Assembly (NCBI GenBank): GCA_018901125.1
Contig: JAHIFE010000011.1
Location: 1 to 33,496 of the forward strand
Direction: 5' to 3'
Length of the DNA stretch: 33,496 nucleotides
From: Pseudomonadota bacterium
GTDB lineage: Bacteria > Desulfobacterota > Desulfobacteria > Desulfobacterales > RPRI01
The notes under the pieces are model-generated. The model saw only the letters and a list, made by a program, of their open reading frames with translations, was not told the origin of the DNA and did no database searches. Positions 1,000 through 33,496 of the stretch are shown here, one piece after another. Position numbers and translations under genes: made by a program. Numbering within the stretch: position 1 is the first letter of the stretch; each line of letters opens with the position of its first letter.

Positions 1000-1141
1000 G
1001 AGCCAGTTTCAAAACGTCCCATTTTGGCCGATCTCTGCGTTGGGCGAAAATTTTAATCCTCGAAATACTCCATGTATTCCTGCGGTTAAAATTTTCACCC
1101 GCCTTGACCTTGATCAAACTGAAACGTTTTGAAAGTGGCTC
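1000..1141 (-). mobile_element. 142-bp MITE-like palindromic element, copy 1
   Basis: The element starts GAGCCAGTTTCAAAACGT and ends with the inverted form ACGTTTTGAAAGTGGCTC. It is flanked on both sides by ATGG (996-999 and 1142-1145), a 4-bp target duplication. The inner arms repeat GGTTAAAATTTTCACCC in inverted form. Orientation is opposite to copies 3 and 4. It lies five bases past the stop of coaE. It has no coding capacity; the 60-codon frame running through it has no ribosome-binding site. Confidence 0.88.
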
Positions 1142-4315: not shown

Positions 4316-4328
4316 TATTTATTACCTT

Positions 4329-4470
4329 GAGCCAGTTTCAAAATGCCCTGTTTTGGCGGATTTCTGCGTTGGGCTCAAATTTCAATCCTCGAAACACACT
4401 TGGTATTCCTGTGGTTGAAATTTTCGCCTGCCTTGAGCTTGAGCAAACTGAAGCGTTTTGGAATTGGCTC
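4329..4470 (-). mobile_element. 142-bp MITE-like palindromic element, copy 2 (most diverged)
   Basis: Ends GAGCCAGTTTCAAAATGCCC and GAAGCGTTTTGGAATTGGCTC, flanked by CCTT on both sides (4325-4328 and 4471-4474). It has the same orientation and exactly the same length as copy 1 but many internal substitutions, so it is probably the oldest insertion. It abuts the start region of mobB. Confidence 0.85.
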
Positions 4471-4503
4471 CCTTAATAGTTATTATTTATGAAGTACCCC
4501 TCA

Positions 4504-14493: not shown

Positions 14494-14635
14494 GAGCCGC
14501 TTTCAAAACGTTTCAGTTTGGTCAAGGTCAAGGCGGGTGAAAATTTTAACCGCAGGAATACATGGGGTATTTCGAGGATTAAAATTTTCACCCAACGCAG
14601 AGATCGGCCAAAATGGGACGTTTTGAAACTGGCTC
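14494..14635 (+). mobile_element. 142-bp MITE-like palindromic element, copy 3
   Basis: Ends GAGCCGCTTTCAAAACGT and ACGTTTTGAAACTGGCTC, flanked by TAAA (14490-14493 and 14636-14639). The inner arms GGGTGAAAATTTTAA and TTAAAATTTTCACCC are perfect inverted copies. It sits between the acyl-CoA dehydrogenase stop and the nnrD start, and could fold in RNA as a long hairpin separating the two operons. Confidence 0.9.
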
Positions 14636-14662
14636 TAAAGCATGTTTTTTCCGGAGAGCCAA

Positions 14663-18234: not shown

Positions 18235-20031
18235 TTACAACATATTGGGAATCCTTCCAAAAGCAGGCAAAAGTCCTCTTTGCCTGAATGCCTGAATCGT
18301 CTTGAGGCAATCTTCTTCATTAGTAAAAGGTCCTGCCATAACCCTGAACCATATTTTATCAGGCGATATATTTCGGGGGATGATCTCGATCTTTTTATCC
18401 TTAATATTTATAAAATTTTTGTAGTTCAAAGCTTCCTGGCTGGTCGAAAAAGTCCCAAGATGAGCTTTGATGCTTCCATCAGATAATTTTGCAATCAGAT
18501 TCGACTCCGTAATTTCCGGTATACGAATTTTCTGACCGACGAGAATTAGATCGGGATTAACGATTTCCAAGTTAAATGCCAGAATAAAGTCCATCAGGGT
18601 GGTGTTTACCTGATTATAATTATTTAAAATCAACGATGAAAGATTGGCCCCTTGTTCAATATCAACAATTTTTTTATATCGGATCTCTGTTCTTGCTGGT
18701 GCAACAGATGGCTTGGGCGAAACTTCGGCAGAAGGGCTTGCGGCTGCCTGATTGTTCTTAGGAGTTGCGTCAGGAGCAAATTTTGATACTGAATTAGTCT
18801 CGATGACGGGGGCTTTGGTTACGTCCTTTTCTATAACCGGTTCTTTTAATGGAATTTTATCGGAAACGGCCAAGGCTTCAGAAGGGCTTGTTGCTGGCTG
18901 ATTGTTCTCGGAAGTTGCATCCTGAGTATTTTTTGCCGCTGAATCAGCCTCGATAACTGGGGCTTTAGTCACGACTTCTTCTATAACCGGGTCTTTTATT
19001 GTAGTTTTTTCAGAAACCGCCAATGGTTTCGAGTAAGTTGCTATTTGCGGAATTTCAGGAGTGTTTTTCAGATAATCTTTTCCCAGTAGGACCGCAAGAA
19101 CAATGCATCCGGCAGCTATGCAAAAATAAAATGATCTTTTAAGCCAGATATTTGCTTTCGTGGATATGGAGTGGGATTTTTGCTTATTCCCGCTTGCAAT
19201 ATTTCCTGCCTTTTTATCTGCTAAAAGATTTTCTTCATTGCGGATCTTTCTAACCGTTGAAGCCGATATGGGTTTTTCAGAGCTCTCAAATCCTTTAAAT
19301 AAGGCGTTGTGACAGAGGACATTAATTTTTCGGGGAACACCGTCGGCATATTTGCAAATCAAAGCCAATGCTTCTGGTGAAAATACGTCATTACTATTAC
19401 CCCCTGCATGAAGTAATCGATGATCGATATATTCCATCGATTCCGCCAGGCTCAGGCGTGTGATACGGCTGATGATTCCGATCCTTTGTTTCAGTTGCCT
19501 CAGCCCTTTTGTATGCAGTTTGGTTTCAAGTTCCGGCCAGCCCACAAAAATTATTTGCAGGAGCTTTGAAGTACTGGTTTCTAAATTGGAGGTCAATCGC
19601 AATTCCTCCAGAACATCCCTGGGAATGTCCTGCGCTTCGTCGATAATGAGTATCAGATTTTTGCCCCGAGCCAGGTTTTGTATCAAGTATTCATTCAGCT
19701 GGTGAACCATAGTGCCCTTGTTCGCTCTTTCGAGGGGTAGCCCAAGTTTTATCAGAAGCTCCTTTAAAATCTGTTCGAAGGGAAGATTTCCCTGCGGAAA
19801 GCAGACCACATTTACATTTTCATCTAAACTTCCGATCAGTTGGTTTATCAATACGGTTTTTCCGGTACCATTTTCACCGATCAGCAGCATAAACCCTTTG
19901 CGCTCTTTGACCACGTACAGCAAAGAGGCTAATGCTTCCTTATGACTCTCCGATGGAAAGAAATATTTTGAATCCGGTGAGATATCAAACGGATTTTCTG
20001 AAAGGCCGTAATATTGAATGTAGTGATTCAT
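18235..20031 (-). CDS. GspA/ExeA-like AAA ATPase with TM, tandem repeats, LysM-like and SPOR domains
   Basis: A 598-residue protein beginning like ExeA and PEP-CTERM-locus secretion ATPases (YYGLSENPFDISPD). Walker A GENGTGKT is at 52-59 and Walker B LILIIDEAQD at 126-135. One membrane helix spans about 299-317. Outside it are two tandem 50-residue repeats (337-386 and 387-436, each LAVS-K...PVIE-VTKAPVIE), a LysM-like segment ending LVGQKIRIP near 505, and a SPOR-like domain from about 512. Such ATPases help assemble secretion machinery through peptidoglycan. I start at the ATG at 20031, preceded by GAGG; a frame 16 codons longer lacks a site. Confidence 0.88.
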   Translation of the reverse strand: MNHYIQYYGLSENPFDISPDSKYFFPSESHKEALASLLYVVKERKGFMLLIGENGTGKTVLINQLIGSLDENVNVVCFPQGNLPFEQILKELLIKLGLPLERANKGTMVHQLNEYLIQNLARGKNLILIIDEAQDIPRDVLEELRLTSNLETSTSKLLQIIFVGWPELETKLHTKGLRQLKQRIGIISRITRLSLAESMEYIDHRLLHAGGNSNDVFSPEALALICKYADGVPRKINVLCHNALFKGFESSEKPISASTVRKIRNEENLLADKKAGNIASGNKQKSHSISTKANIWLKRSFYFCIAAGCIVLAVLLGKDYLKNTPEIPQIATYSKPLAVSEKTTIKDPVIEEVVTKAPVIEADSAAKNTQDATSENNQPATSPSEALAVSDKIPLKEPVIEKDVTKAPVIETNSVSKFAPDATPKNNQAAASPSAEVSPKPSVAPARTEIRYKKIVDIEQGANLSSLILNNYNQVNTTLMDFILAFNLEIVNPDLILVGQKIRIPEITESNLIAKLSDGSIKAHLGTFSTSQEALNYKNFINIKDKKIEIIPRNISPDKIWFRVMAGPFTNEEDCLKTIQAFRQRGLLPAFGRIPNML

Positions 20032-21325: not shown

Positions 21326-21352
21326 ATAATAACATTACAATTATAAACTTGG

Positions 21353-21494
21353 GAGCCACTTTCAAAACGTTTCAGTTTGGTCAAGGTCAAGGCGGGTGAA
21401 AATTTTAACCGCAGGAATACATGGAGTATTTCGAGGATGAAAATTTTCGCCCAACGCAGAGATCGGCCAAAATGGGACGTTTTGAAACTGGCTC
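21353..21494 (+). mobile_element. 142-bp MITE-like palindromic element, copy 4
   Basis: Ends GAGCCACTTTCAAAACGT and ACGTTTTGAAACTGGCTC, flanked by TTGG (21349-21352 and 21495-21498). It is nearly identical to copy 3 and lies in the same orientation, so the two are probably recent relatives. It lies 65 bases beyond the stop of the RHH-PilZ gene. Confidence 0.9.
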
Positions 21495-21530
21495 TTGGAT
21501 GTGCTTCGATAGACCAGCGTTATAATCCAA

Positions 21531-21544
21531 TTTGAAACTGGCTC
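21531..21544 (+). repeat. Solo MITE end
   Basis: TTTGAAACTGGCTC repeats the last 14 bases of MITE copy 4, exactly 50 bp further on, without the rest of an element. It may be a relic of an older, deleted copy or of an imprecise excision. Confidence 0.5.
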
Positions 21545-32491: not shown

Positions 32492-33496
32492 TCAGGTCTT
32501 ATTATATAGCCGGTATCGATTCCGTCCCTCTTGCTTTGCCTGATACATGGCACTGTCGGCGGTTTTCAGAATGGTGTCGATATCAGCGCCGTGGTCGGGG
32601 TAGATAGAAATCCCTATACTGGTGGTAATGGTTATTGTGTGTCCGTCAAGGGTAATGGAGTCACGTAAACCATCCATAATTTTCTGGGCAACCTGCAGGG
32701 CAGACTGGGCATCTTTTTGTTCAGGAAGTAAGAGAACGAATTCATCTCCACCTAAGCGTACAACGGTGTCTACTTGCCGGAGGATACTCGTCAATTTTTC
32801 TGCAACAGATTTCAGAATCAGATCTCCTATATGGTGACCGAATGTATCATTGATCTCTTTGAATTTATCAAGGTCGAGCATCATAAAGGCAACCTTGTTC
32901 CGGTTTCTATCGGCCTGGTATATAGCCACGGCCGATCGGTCTCTGAGAAGCATTCTGTTCGGCAGACCTGTCAGTGGGTCATGGTAGGCGATATGCTTCA
33001 TTTTCCGTTCCATTTCCTTACGCTCAGTTATATCCTCGATAGCCAGAAGGATAATCCGTTCCTTGCTCAGCACTCTTTGAATCTGCCGGGCATTCAAAAG
33101 CATTGTGCGCCTGCCGATGGTGGCAAAGTCGTGTTCGACCTCGTAGTTGTCGAAGGTTGCCTTCTCGGGAAGGATGTCTTCCAGCAGTTCCCGCAATTTG
33201 GGGATATCCCACTGTTTATTTCCCAAGTCATAGATAAGCTGCCCCACGGTCTCTTCAGGCTTTACTTTGAAGAATTCATAGAAGGAACGGCTGACCGTGA
33301 CCACCCGTAGGTCTTGGTCCAAAGAAATTAATGGTTCACGCACAGTGTTGATGACACTCTCGGCGAATTCACTGGCTTCATCCGCAGCTATTTTAATAAT
33401 CGCCAGTTCTTTTCGGGCCCTTTCCAGGCCAGCTTCTATTTCCTTACGCTCAGTTATATCCTCGATAGCCAGAAGGATAATCCGTTCCTTGCTCAG
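32492..33496 (-). CDS. PAS-GGDEF diguanylate cyclase, N-terminus outside window
   Basis: The open frame continues without a stop to the window edge, so the protein is longer than the 334 residues seen. Visible in order: the end of one PAS/PAC domain (LSKERIILLAIEDITERKE), a linker, a second PAS domain (REPLISLDQDLRVV), its PAC end with almost the same LSKERIILLAIEDITERKE, and a GGDEF domain with RLGGDEF and HHIGD. The GGDEF motif and the YQAKQEGRNRYR tail look active, so it should make cyclic di-GMP. An internal GTG at 33343 is not the true start. Base composition is richer in G+C than the purH gene beside it. Confidence 0.92.
   Translation of the reverse strand: MSKERIILLAIEDITERKEIEAGLERARKELAIIKIAADEASEFAESVINTVREPLISLDQDLRVVTVSRSFYEFFKVKPEETVGQLIYDLGNKQWDIPKLRELLEDILPEKATFDNYEVEHDFATIGRRTMLLNARQIQRVLSKERIILLAIEDITERKEMERKMKHIAYHDPLTGLPNRMLLRDRSAVAIYQADRNRNKVAFMMLDLDKFKEINDTFGHHIGDLILKSVAEKLTSILRQVDTVVRLGGDEFVLLLPEQKDAQSALQVAQKIMDGLRDSITLDGHTITITTSIGISIYPDHGADIDTILKTADSAMYQAKQEGRNRYRLYNKT
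33012..33070. repeat. 59-bp exact direct repeat, first copy
   Basis: This stretch, encoding the PAC-end motif LSKERIILLAIEDITERK, is identical over 59 bases to 33438-33496. The mismatch directly before the repeat and the window end after it bound the visible identity. Confidence 0.85.
33438..33496. repeat. 59-bp exact direct repeat, second copy, ending at window edge
   Basis: Second copy of the 59-bp repeat, spaced 426 bp (142 codons) from the first and in the same frame. It ends exactly where the sequence ends, so the full extent of the identity is unknown. Confidence 0.85.

What the first reader, a model, noticed from the sequence alone, without database searches (positions are those of the whole stretch)
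14494..14635. Four-copy 142-bp palindromic mobile element with perfect 4-bp target duplications
Copies at 1000-1141, 4329-4470, 14494-14635 and 21353-21494 are each exactly 142 bp, start GAGCC and end GGCTC, carry ~18-bp terminal inverted repeats (TTTCAAAACGT core) and inner inverted arms (GGTGAAAATTTTAA). Each is flanked by its own 4-bp direct repeat (ATGG, CCTT, TAAA, TTGG). This is the signature of transposition of a non-autonomous element. It has no coding capacity and the mobilising transposase is not in the window. I cannot name its family.
Basis: seen in the sequence. Interest (0 to 1): 0.8.

Follow-up and report, generated by a model that had tools for sequence, protein, structure and literature searches.

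The report
Order-wide 142-bp hairpin mobile repeat
The four repeats are copies of a small non-coding jumping DNA that folds into a hairpin, has spread to a few hundred copies in this bacterium and occurs in many of its relatives, and the enzyme that moves it has not been found.

Summary
All four copies are 142 bp, start GAGCC, end GGCTC, and carry perfect 4-bp duplications. The own genome holds 604 such ends (8 in the reversed control), i.e. a few hundred copies. The exact 17-bp end pattern occurs in 63 of 389 genomes of the order, some of the single hits being chance. Of 221 distinct elements read, 145 have an exact 4-bp duplication (shuffled flanks: mean 2.9, maximum 10) and 155 are 142 or 143 bp long. 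Three pre-insertion sites show the target 4-mer once, so the elements transpose. Terminal bases, duplication size and usual length are conserved while the interior diverges; 15 of 33 consensus pairs (17 of 43 on the other strand) show compensatory changes. Elements avoid genes and often sit just after stop codons. No coding element with these ends was found in the DNA read. IS5-family elements of the order have similar ends but duplicate TA; ISAzo13 does not fit. Verdict: a new MITE family; mobilising enzyme unknown, an IS5-like one being the best lead.

The parts
1000..1141 (-). element copy 1; TSD ATGG 996-999 and 1142-1145; 9 nt beyond the stop codon (1151) of a CoaE gene on the minus strand
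4329..4470 (-). element copy 2 (diverged); TSD CCTT 4325-4328 and 4471-4474; 13 nt upstream of the start codon of the MobB ORF (minus strand, start 4315)
14494..14635 (+). element copy 3; TSD TAAA 14490-14493 and 14636-14639; between an acyl-CoA dehydrogenase ORF (stop ends 14487) and a YjeF_N/Carb_kinase ORF
14494..14515 (+). left outer arm of copy 3 (21 pairs, one unpaired position, in the fold)
14614..14635 (+). right outer arm of copy 3
21353..21494 (+). element copy 4; TSD TTGG 21349-21352 and 21495-21498; between a PEP-CTERM ORF and a PilZ ORF
21531..21544 (.). probable remnant of an older element: only TTTGAAACTGGCTC is left, 36 bp beyond copy 4

Best explanation
A non-autonomous cut-and-paste element (MITE). 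A DDE transposase acting in trans recognises the ends (GAGCCNNTTTCAAAA, about 15-17 bp) on both sides of a palindrome of usually 142 bp and inserts it at AT-rich, mostly intergenic sites with a 4-bp staggered cut that is filled in as a 4-bp duplication. SHOWN: ends, exact 4-bp duplications, empty sites, a burst of near-identical copies, order-wide spread, placement between genes and next to stop codons, compensatory changes. INFERRED: that the enzyme is a DDE transposase (from the 4-bp duplication and inverted ends; best lead an IS5-family relative, about 0.4), that it acts in trans, and that the hairpin is kept because foldable copies move or survive better.
For: 604 ends at up to 2 mismatches in the own genome, reversed control 8. 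221 distinct elements from the held loci: 145 with exact 4-bp duplication, 28 more with one mismatch; shuffled right flanks give mean 2.9, max 10; 76 different 4-mers. Three clean pre-insertion sites with the 4-mer once: L266 (Desulfobacterium MAG) vs L273 (Desulfocicer MAG), 800 bp without a gap; L115:3304 in a sequence related to the ISAs1 gene of L090, 241 bp without a gap; L288 vs a second place in L288, 163 bp with one gap. In the 21 copies of G000 found in stretches not chosen by similarity, the nearest other copy is at a median of 98.6% identity, 17 of 21 at 97% or more. Exact ends in 63 of 389 genomes of the order. 15 of 33 pairs with compensatory changes, 0 of 500 shuffles as high.
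Against: No element with coding capacity and these ends was found in the 2.1 Mb of loci held (some overlapping) or among the solo ends followed up; in G057 (two contigs) the exact 15-mer ends lie in short elements or look truncated or chance. So the enzyme class is inferred. Of 221 pairs, 42 have neither a 4-bp duplication (exact or one mismatch) nor a 5-bp one; 6 have 5 bp. These include old copies and false pairs such as those of 217-255 bp.
Confidence: 0.88

Rival explanations
1. The elements are deletion derivatives of an IS5-family (two overlapping ORFs, IS427-like by recall) insertion sequence whose TIR they share, and are moved by its transposase.
For: IS5-family elements of the order have ends GAGCCCATTTCAAAACCT and GAACCCATTTCAAAACCT (L406, G001, same genus, 942 bp; the first is 15 of 18 identical to the window ends) or GAAGCCATTTCAAAACCT (both ends of L404 and L405, one end of L401; 933-942 bp). 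L404 ORFs hit NF033580, IS5. An exact GAGCCCGTTTCAAAA end abuts an IS5 pseudogene in G327.
Against: L401, L404 and L405 duplicate only TA and L406 shows no duplication; 0 of 145 element duplications fit YTAR; the IS5 query found nothing at E 0.001 in G000, G003 or G007. No shared interior was noticed, but none was systematically searched for.
Confidence: 0.35
2. Mobilised by an ISAzo13-family transposase (recalled: ends Ga/g, TSD 0-4 bp).
For: In the genus, PF07592 matches occur only in G000, G003 and G007, the three members with the 142-bp element; 104 of 389 genomes of the order match.
Against: Those three have only C-terminal pieces of 46-66 profile positions. Of ten element-carrying genomes tested up to E 10, G192, G098, G113 and G088 have no match, G057 and G045 only E above 0.2, G124 one at 8.4e-4 below the cut-off. 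Of 30 ISAzo13 loci, none has recognisable GAGCC ends with a 4-bp duplication; four relaxed pairs look like chance.
Confidence: 0.03
3. Not transposition but host-domesticated structured repeats (3'-end hairpins, terminators) copied by recombination and kept for function.
For: 135 of 161 elements lie outside ORFs, where random points do so about 20% of the time, and 52 of those 135 are within 15 bp of a stop codon against 8-10% at random; pairs covary.
Against: 4-bp duplications and clean empty sites; no orientation preference relative to the gene whose stop adjoins (23 same, 21 opposite, 7 between two stops); no terminator-like site at copy 3, the only copy scanned. Placement can follow from AT-rich targets and purging from genes.
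Confidence: 0.08
4. REP/REPIN-like elements moved as folded single strands by a Y1 (RAYT) enzyme.
For: Palindromic and intergenic; one strand folds better in 148 of 161 elements and in 35 of 37 non-redundant type A elements.
Against: 4-bp duplications at flush inverted ends are not what Y1 enzymes make (recall). In recent copies the wobble bias is weak, 18 G-U against 11 A-C events, p 0.26; type B shows no strand bias (4 against 2 of 8).
Confidence: 0.04

Closest known systems
Bacterial MITEs, e.g. Chunjie of Geobacter uraniireducens
   Same: Non-coding, terminal inverted repeats and direct repeats, intergenic copies in number (review PMC10969869, passages seen).
   Different: Chunjie is 178-235 bp in that review; its sequence could not be compared (original paper not held). 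Here 142 or 143 bp predominates across many genera.
RUP, ERIC and Correia elements
   Same: Non-autonomous repeats under about 200 bp with inverted ends (review PMC2229807, passages seen; ERIC and Correia details by recall).
   Different: That review gives a TA motif at the ends of most such elements; here ends are GAGCC...GGCTC and duplications are 4 bp without a fixed sequence.
IS5-family elements of the same order
   Same: TIR 15 of 18 identical at best.
   Different: Those with a visible duplication have TA; they carry a transposase; not detected in G000, G003 or G007 with the query used.
REP/REPIN with RAYT
   Same: Hairpin repeats in high copy.
   Different: Recalled as lacking target duplications; here an exact 4-bp duplication in 145 of 221.
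Integron attC sites
   Same: Conserved ends with a variable, structure-conserving interior (recall).
   Different: attC does not make target duplications (recall). Integron context was not searched for.

Membership tests
MITE | short, no coding capacity | tested here: met
   142 bp; only ORFs that run in from outside overlap a copy
MITE | terminal inverted repeats | tested here: met
MITE | target duplication of fixed length | tested here: met
   4 bp exact in 145 of 221, one mismatch in 28, 5 bp in 6
MITE | insertion into an empty site | tested here: met
   three clean sites
MITE | parent autonomous element with the same ends | tested here: inconclusive
   none found; only part of each genome was read
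IS5 (IS427-like) derivative | same TIR | tested here: inconclusive
   15 of 18 at best; no exact match at both ends
IS5 (IS427-like) derivative | same target duplication (TA / YTAR) | tested here: not met
   0 of 145 fit YTAR
ISAzo13 derivative | enzyme present where the element is abundant, and same ends | tested here: not met
REP/RAYT | no target duplication (recall) | tested here: not met
ERIC/RUP type | TA ends or TA duplication | tested here: not met
Chunjie | sequence of its ends | not testable with these tools
   paper not held
Rfam RNA | match at gathering score | tested here: not met
   0 matches in the window

The most novel reading that the evidence does not exclude
The family has no parent insertion sequence. 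It is a self-standing class of hairpin elements, perhaps reaching beyond one phylum, moved by a stand-alone transposase gene that lacks these ends itself, as RAYTs serve REPs but with a 4-bp staggered cut. The machine reads fixed ends plus a folded strand, so interiors are free to change if they keep folding; the long-term bias to wobble pairs on one strand would be the trace of a single-stranded stage (ssDNA or RNA).
Probability: 0.18. Interest if true: 0.8.

Novelty: new member of a known kind. Interest (0 to 1): 0.5.

Why it matters
A few hundred copies in one genome, many of them near-identical and freshly inserted, with relatives in many genomes of the order, make this a good system for asking how bacterial palindromic MITEs move, why their hairpins persist, and whether they are moved by an enzyme without own ends. 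The elements also break assemblies of these genomes and place hairpins right after stop codons of many genes.

Tried and rejected
Autonomous partner: PF01609 in G000 gave six places; no GAGCC...GGCTC pair of 800-3000 bp with a 4-bp duplication spans any of them; L088 is an IS4-family element with a 10-bp duplication. PF13701 (IS1380): one sub-cut-off hit in G003, none in G000. PF07592 (ISAzo13): rejected. IS5 query: similar ends, other target. Other transposase families were not searched for.

Solo ends: in the stretches read, solo ends mostly look like truncated elements, the rest like chance. One lay upstream of an XRE/InsA-like gene. The family of that gene is not tied to the ends: an exact end lies in 2 of 30 loci (L134, L160), and in L160 it faces away from the gene; L162 holds an element with one mismatch per end. 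G045 has elements and no match to that protein.

G006 contig ends with GAGCCAATTTCAAAACG and another interior: the repeat could not be followed into its middle; a 47-aa frame hit no Pfam family.

A helical-phase reading of the 142/165/188 lengths was dropped: other lengths (152, 155) also recur. RNA function in host mRNAs: no orientation preference. Strand-specific selection: strong in the long term, not significant in recent copies.

Papers: searches. I saw search listings only, except passages of PMC10969869 and PMC2229807. One search looked for six end sequences anywhere in the text of the library: 0 papers. This says nothing about papers outside that library, figures or supplements.

Full report
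CHECK. The four copies are exactly where reported, each 142 bp and each between perfect 4-bp repeats. Copies 3 and 4 are inverted relative to 1 and 2. All four lie between genes: 9 nt beyond the stop codon of coaE, 13 nt upstream of mobB, between an acyl-CoA dehydrogenase ORF and a YjeF_N/Carb_kinase ORF, and between PEP-CTERM and PilZ ORFs. No Rfam family reaches its cut-off in the window. Of ten window ORFs scanned against Pfam none is a transposase; among the other ORFs I recognised none by eye.

OWN GENOME. The window is contig C132 of a 4.45-Mb, 241-contig genome. The end pattern GAGCCNNTTTCAAAACG with up to two mismatches occurs 288 times forward and 316 times reverse; the reversed pattern 4 and 4 times. 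That is a few hundred copies, roughly 1% of the genome; some are counted twice because contigs often begin or end in a copy. In the 21 sources sampled (20 stretches plus the window) 23 paired elements were seen, 20 with an exact 4-bp duplication; in 20 stretches of the relative G003, 23 paired elements, 11 with 4 bp and one with 5 bp. Of 51 G000 elements of about 142 bp, 41 have exact 4-bp duplications and the median nearest neighbour is 98.6% identical, but part of these loci had been fetched as best matches to the window copy. In the 21 copies from stretches not chosen by similarity the median is also 98.6%, 17 of 21 at 97% or more. G003 has 97.2% and exact duplications in 16 of 26; G000 against G003 95.8%, while the six flank alignments between the two genomes seen are 70-85% identical. 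So G000 carries a recent burst, and the elements are more alike between the two genomes than those flanks are.

SPREAD. In the genus, at up to one mismatch, G003 has 209 and 221 ends, G007 5 and 5, the other seven relatives 0-5 per strand, partly chance. With the exact pattern, 63 of 389 genomes of the order (30 of 150 genera) match, several with dozens (G045, G218, G098, G124, G088, G243, G192); the reversed control has 3 matches in all. Some single hits are chance: L214 to L219 show no element around the match. These eight rest on MAG bins, and 3 of the 8 have an exact 4-bp duplication (L282, L293, L295). The viral collection gave 0 with the two-ended pattern; plasmids and phages gave no match for the window copy.

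DUPLICATIONS AND EMPTY SITES. I pooled all held loci, dropped elements within 12 bp of a locus end, with N, or repeated in overlapping loci, and kept 221 with ends of at most two mismatches and 30-260 bp. 145 have an exact 4-bp duplication, 28 one mismatch, and 6 a 5-bp one; shuffling right flanks gives mean 2.9, maximum 10. The 145 4-mers are AT-rich, of 76 kinds, none of the form YTAR. Lengths: 142 in 117, 143 in 38, then 165 (11), 152 (6), 37 (4), 164 (4), 188 (4) and others; a few pairs of 217-255 bp are false. Joining flanks and searching held DNA gave 24 junction-spanning rows, several of them self-hits of short elements. Three are clean, with the 4-mer once in the empty site: L266:4697-4839 (Desulfobacterium MAG) against L273 (Desulfocicer MAG), L115:3304-3445 against an ISAs1 gene in L090 (ISAs1), and L288:4962-5102 against another place in L288. 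Several other rows span the site in a locus without the element but differ or are gapped near the junction and do not show the single 4-mer.

ANATOMY. Sixteen elements that I picked as diverged, three of them of the Prado124 type, share the terminal bases, while the stem changes with its partner: on one strand 15 of 33 pairs have compensatory changes and 97.5% of cells pair (shuffles 85.8%; partners slid by 1-3 columns 28-46%). On the other strand 17 of 43 pairs do, the consensus energy is -46.3 against -23.3 kcal/mol, and several columns exchange U-G, C-G and U-A. The measure 'further pair types' does not clearly exceed its shuffles there (72 of 500 reach it; 8 of 500 on the first strand), and relatedness alone can beat these shuffles. 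That strand folds better in 148 of 161 elements and in 35 of 37 non-redundant type A elements; in a loosely defined third group 6 of 7, in type B 2 against 4 of 8. Among recent G000/G003 copies G-U events are 18 against 11 A-C (p 0.26). Shared ancestry can explain part of the long-term bias, and compensatory change could also come from copying one arm onto the other; selection is inferred. Other interiors with the same ends occur: type B around CCGGCGAAAGCCGG at 143 bp, also at 166 bp, and the Prado124, Trichlorobacter and Lentisphaerae types. Longer forms insert about 23 or 46 bp (GCACG.AGTGAAGC...AGCGCTA) or other short pieces; forms of 37-78 bp keep little more than the ends, six of them with the 4-bp duplication.

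PLACEMENT. Of 161 elements with enough flank, 26 lie inside ORFs where random points do so 79-82% of the time; of the 135 outside, 52 are within 15 bp of a stop codon (random 8-10%) and 17 within 15 bp of a start (random 8-10%) (ORFs of 100 aa or more, a rough gene finder). Orientation relative to the gene is random: 23 against 21 next to a stop, and 43 against 37 between co-directional genes. I read this as AT-rich target choice plus purging from genes, not as a conserved host role; why stop codons are preferred over starts is not explained.

ENZYME. No ORF-bearing element with these ends was found: solo ends mostly look like truncated copies, and the loci held gave four long pairs with a 4-bp duplication, all judged chance because one end already belongs to a short element. 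IS5-family elements of the order carry strikingly similar ends but duplicate TA where a duplication is visible; one such pseudogene abuts an exact GAGCCCGTTTCAAAA end. ISAzo13 was tested and rejected. The mechanism committed to is cut-and-paste in trans by a DDE enzyme, IS5-like being the best lead.

STATUS. It works like a MITE and meets the features of that class that could be tested, except that the parent is unknown. It is not ERIC/RUP (no TA duplication) and not REP/RAYT (has a duplication); Chunjie could not be compared by sequence. No paper in the searched library prints any of six end sequences.

Noticed in passing
L117:10439-11944 (G000:C143), L134-L163: A multigene family of proteins, mostly about 490-570 aa: N-terminal XRE helix-turn-helix, unknown middle, C-terminal IS1 InsA-like zinc-ribbon/HTH without a catalytic domain recognised. 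25 match rows in G000 (about 17 places), 25 in G003, 39 in G007, none in the seven other members of the genus; about 41-67% identical to the query over long matches. Looks like an expanded family of transposase-derived regulators.
   Followed up: partly
window 21531-21544: TTTGAAACTGGCTC, probably a remnant end of an older element 36 bp beyond copy 4.
   Followed up: partly
window 18729-19028: Two 150-nt direct repeats (78% identical) inside the reading frame of an AAA/SPOR-domain protein.
   Followed up: no
window 33008-33070 and 33434-33496: A 63-nt repeat at 98% identity at the contig edge, spacing 426; may be a collapsed tandem repeat of a sensor gene.
   Followed up: no
L069, L076, L081, L085 (G001): Arrays with period 126 bp that contain GAGCCNCTTTTAAAACG-like words; probably unrelated coding or tandem repeats.
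   Followed up: no
L065 end and L073 start (G006): Two contigs end in the same 138-bp repeat that begins GAGCCAATTTCAAAACG at two different flanks, with another interior; no other place in G006 matched.
   Followed up: partly
L430:560-710 (Nitrosomonas plasmid NZ_CP133084.1): A palindromic repeat whose interior matches the Trichlorobacter-type element (80% over 74 bp) but whose outer arms (GGAAACGCTGATTAATT) are different: interiors may be shared between elements with different ends.
   Followed up: no
L306:1769-1857: An 89-bp palindrome GAGCCTATTTCAGTAGG...CCTACTGAAATAGGCTC with TAA on both sides; perhaps a TA-targeting IS5-type MITE.
   Followed up: no
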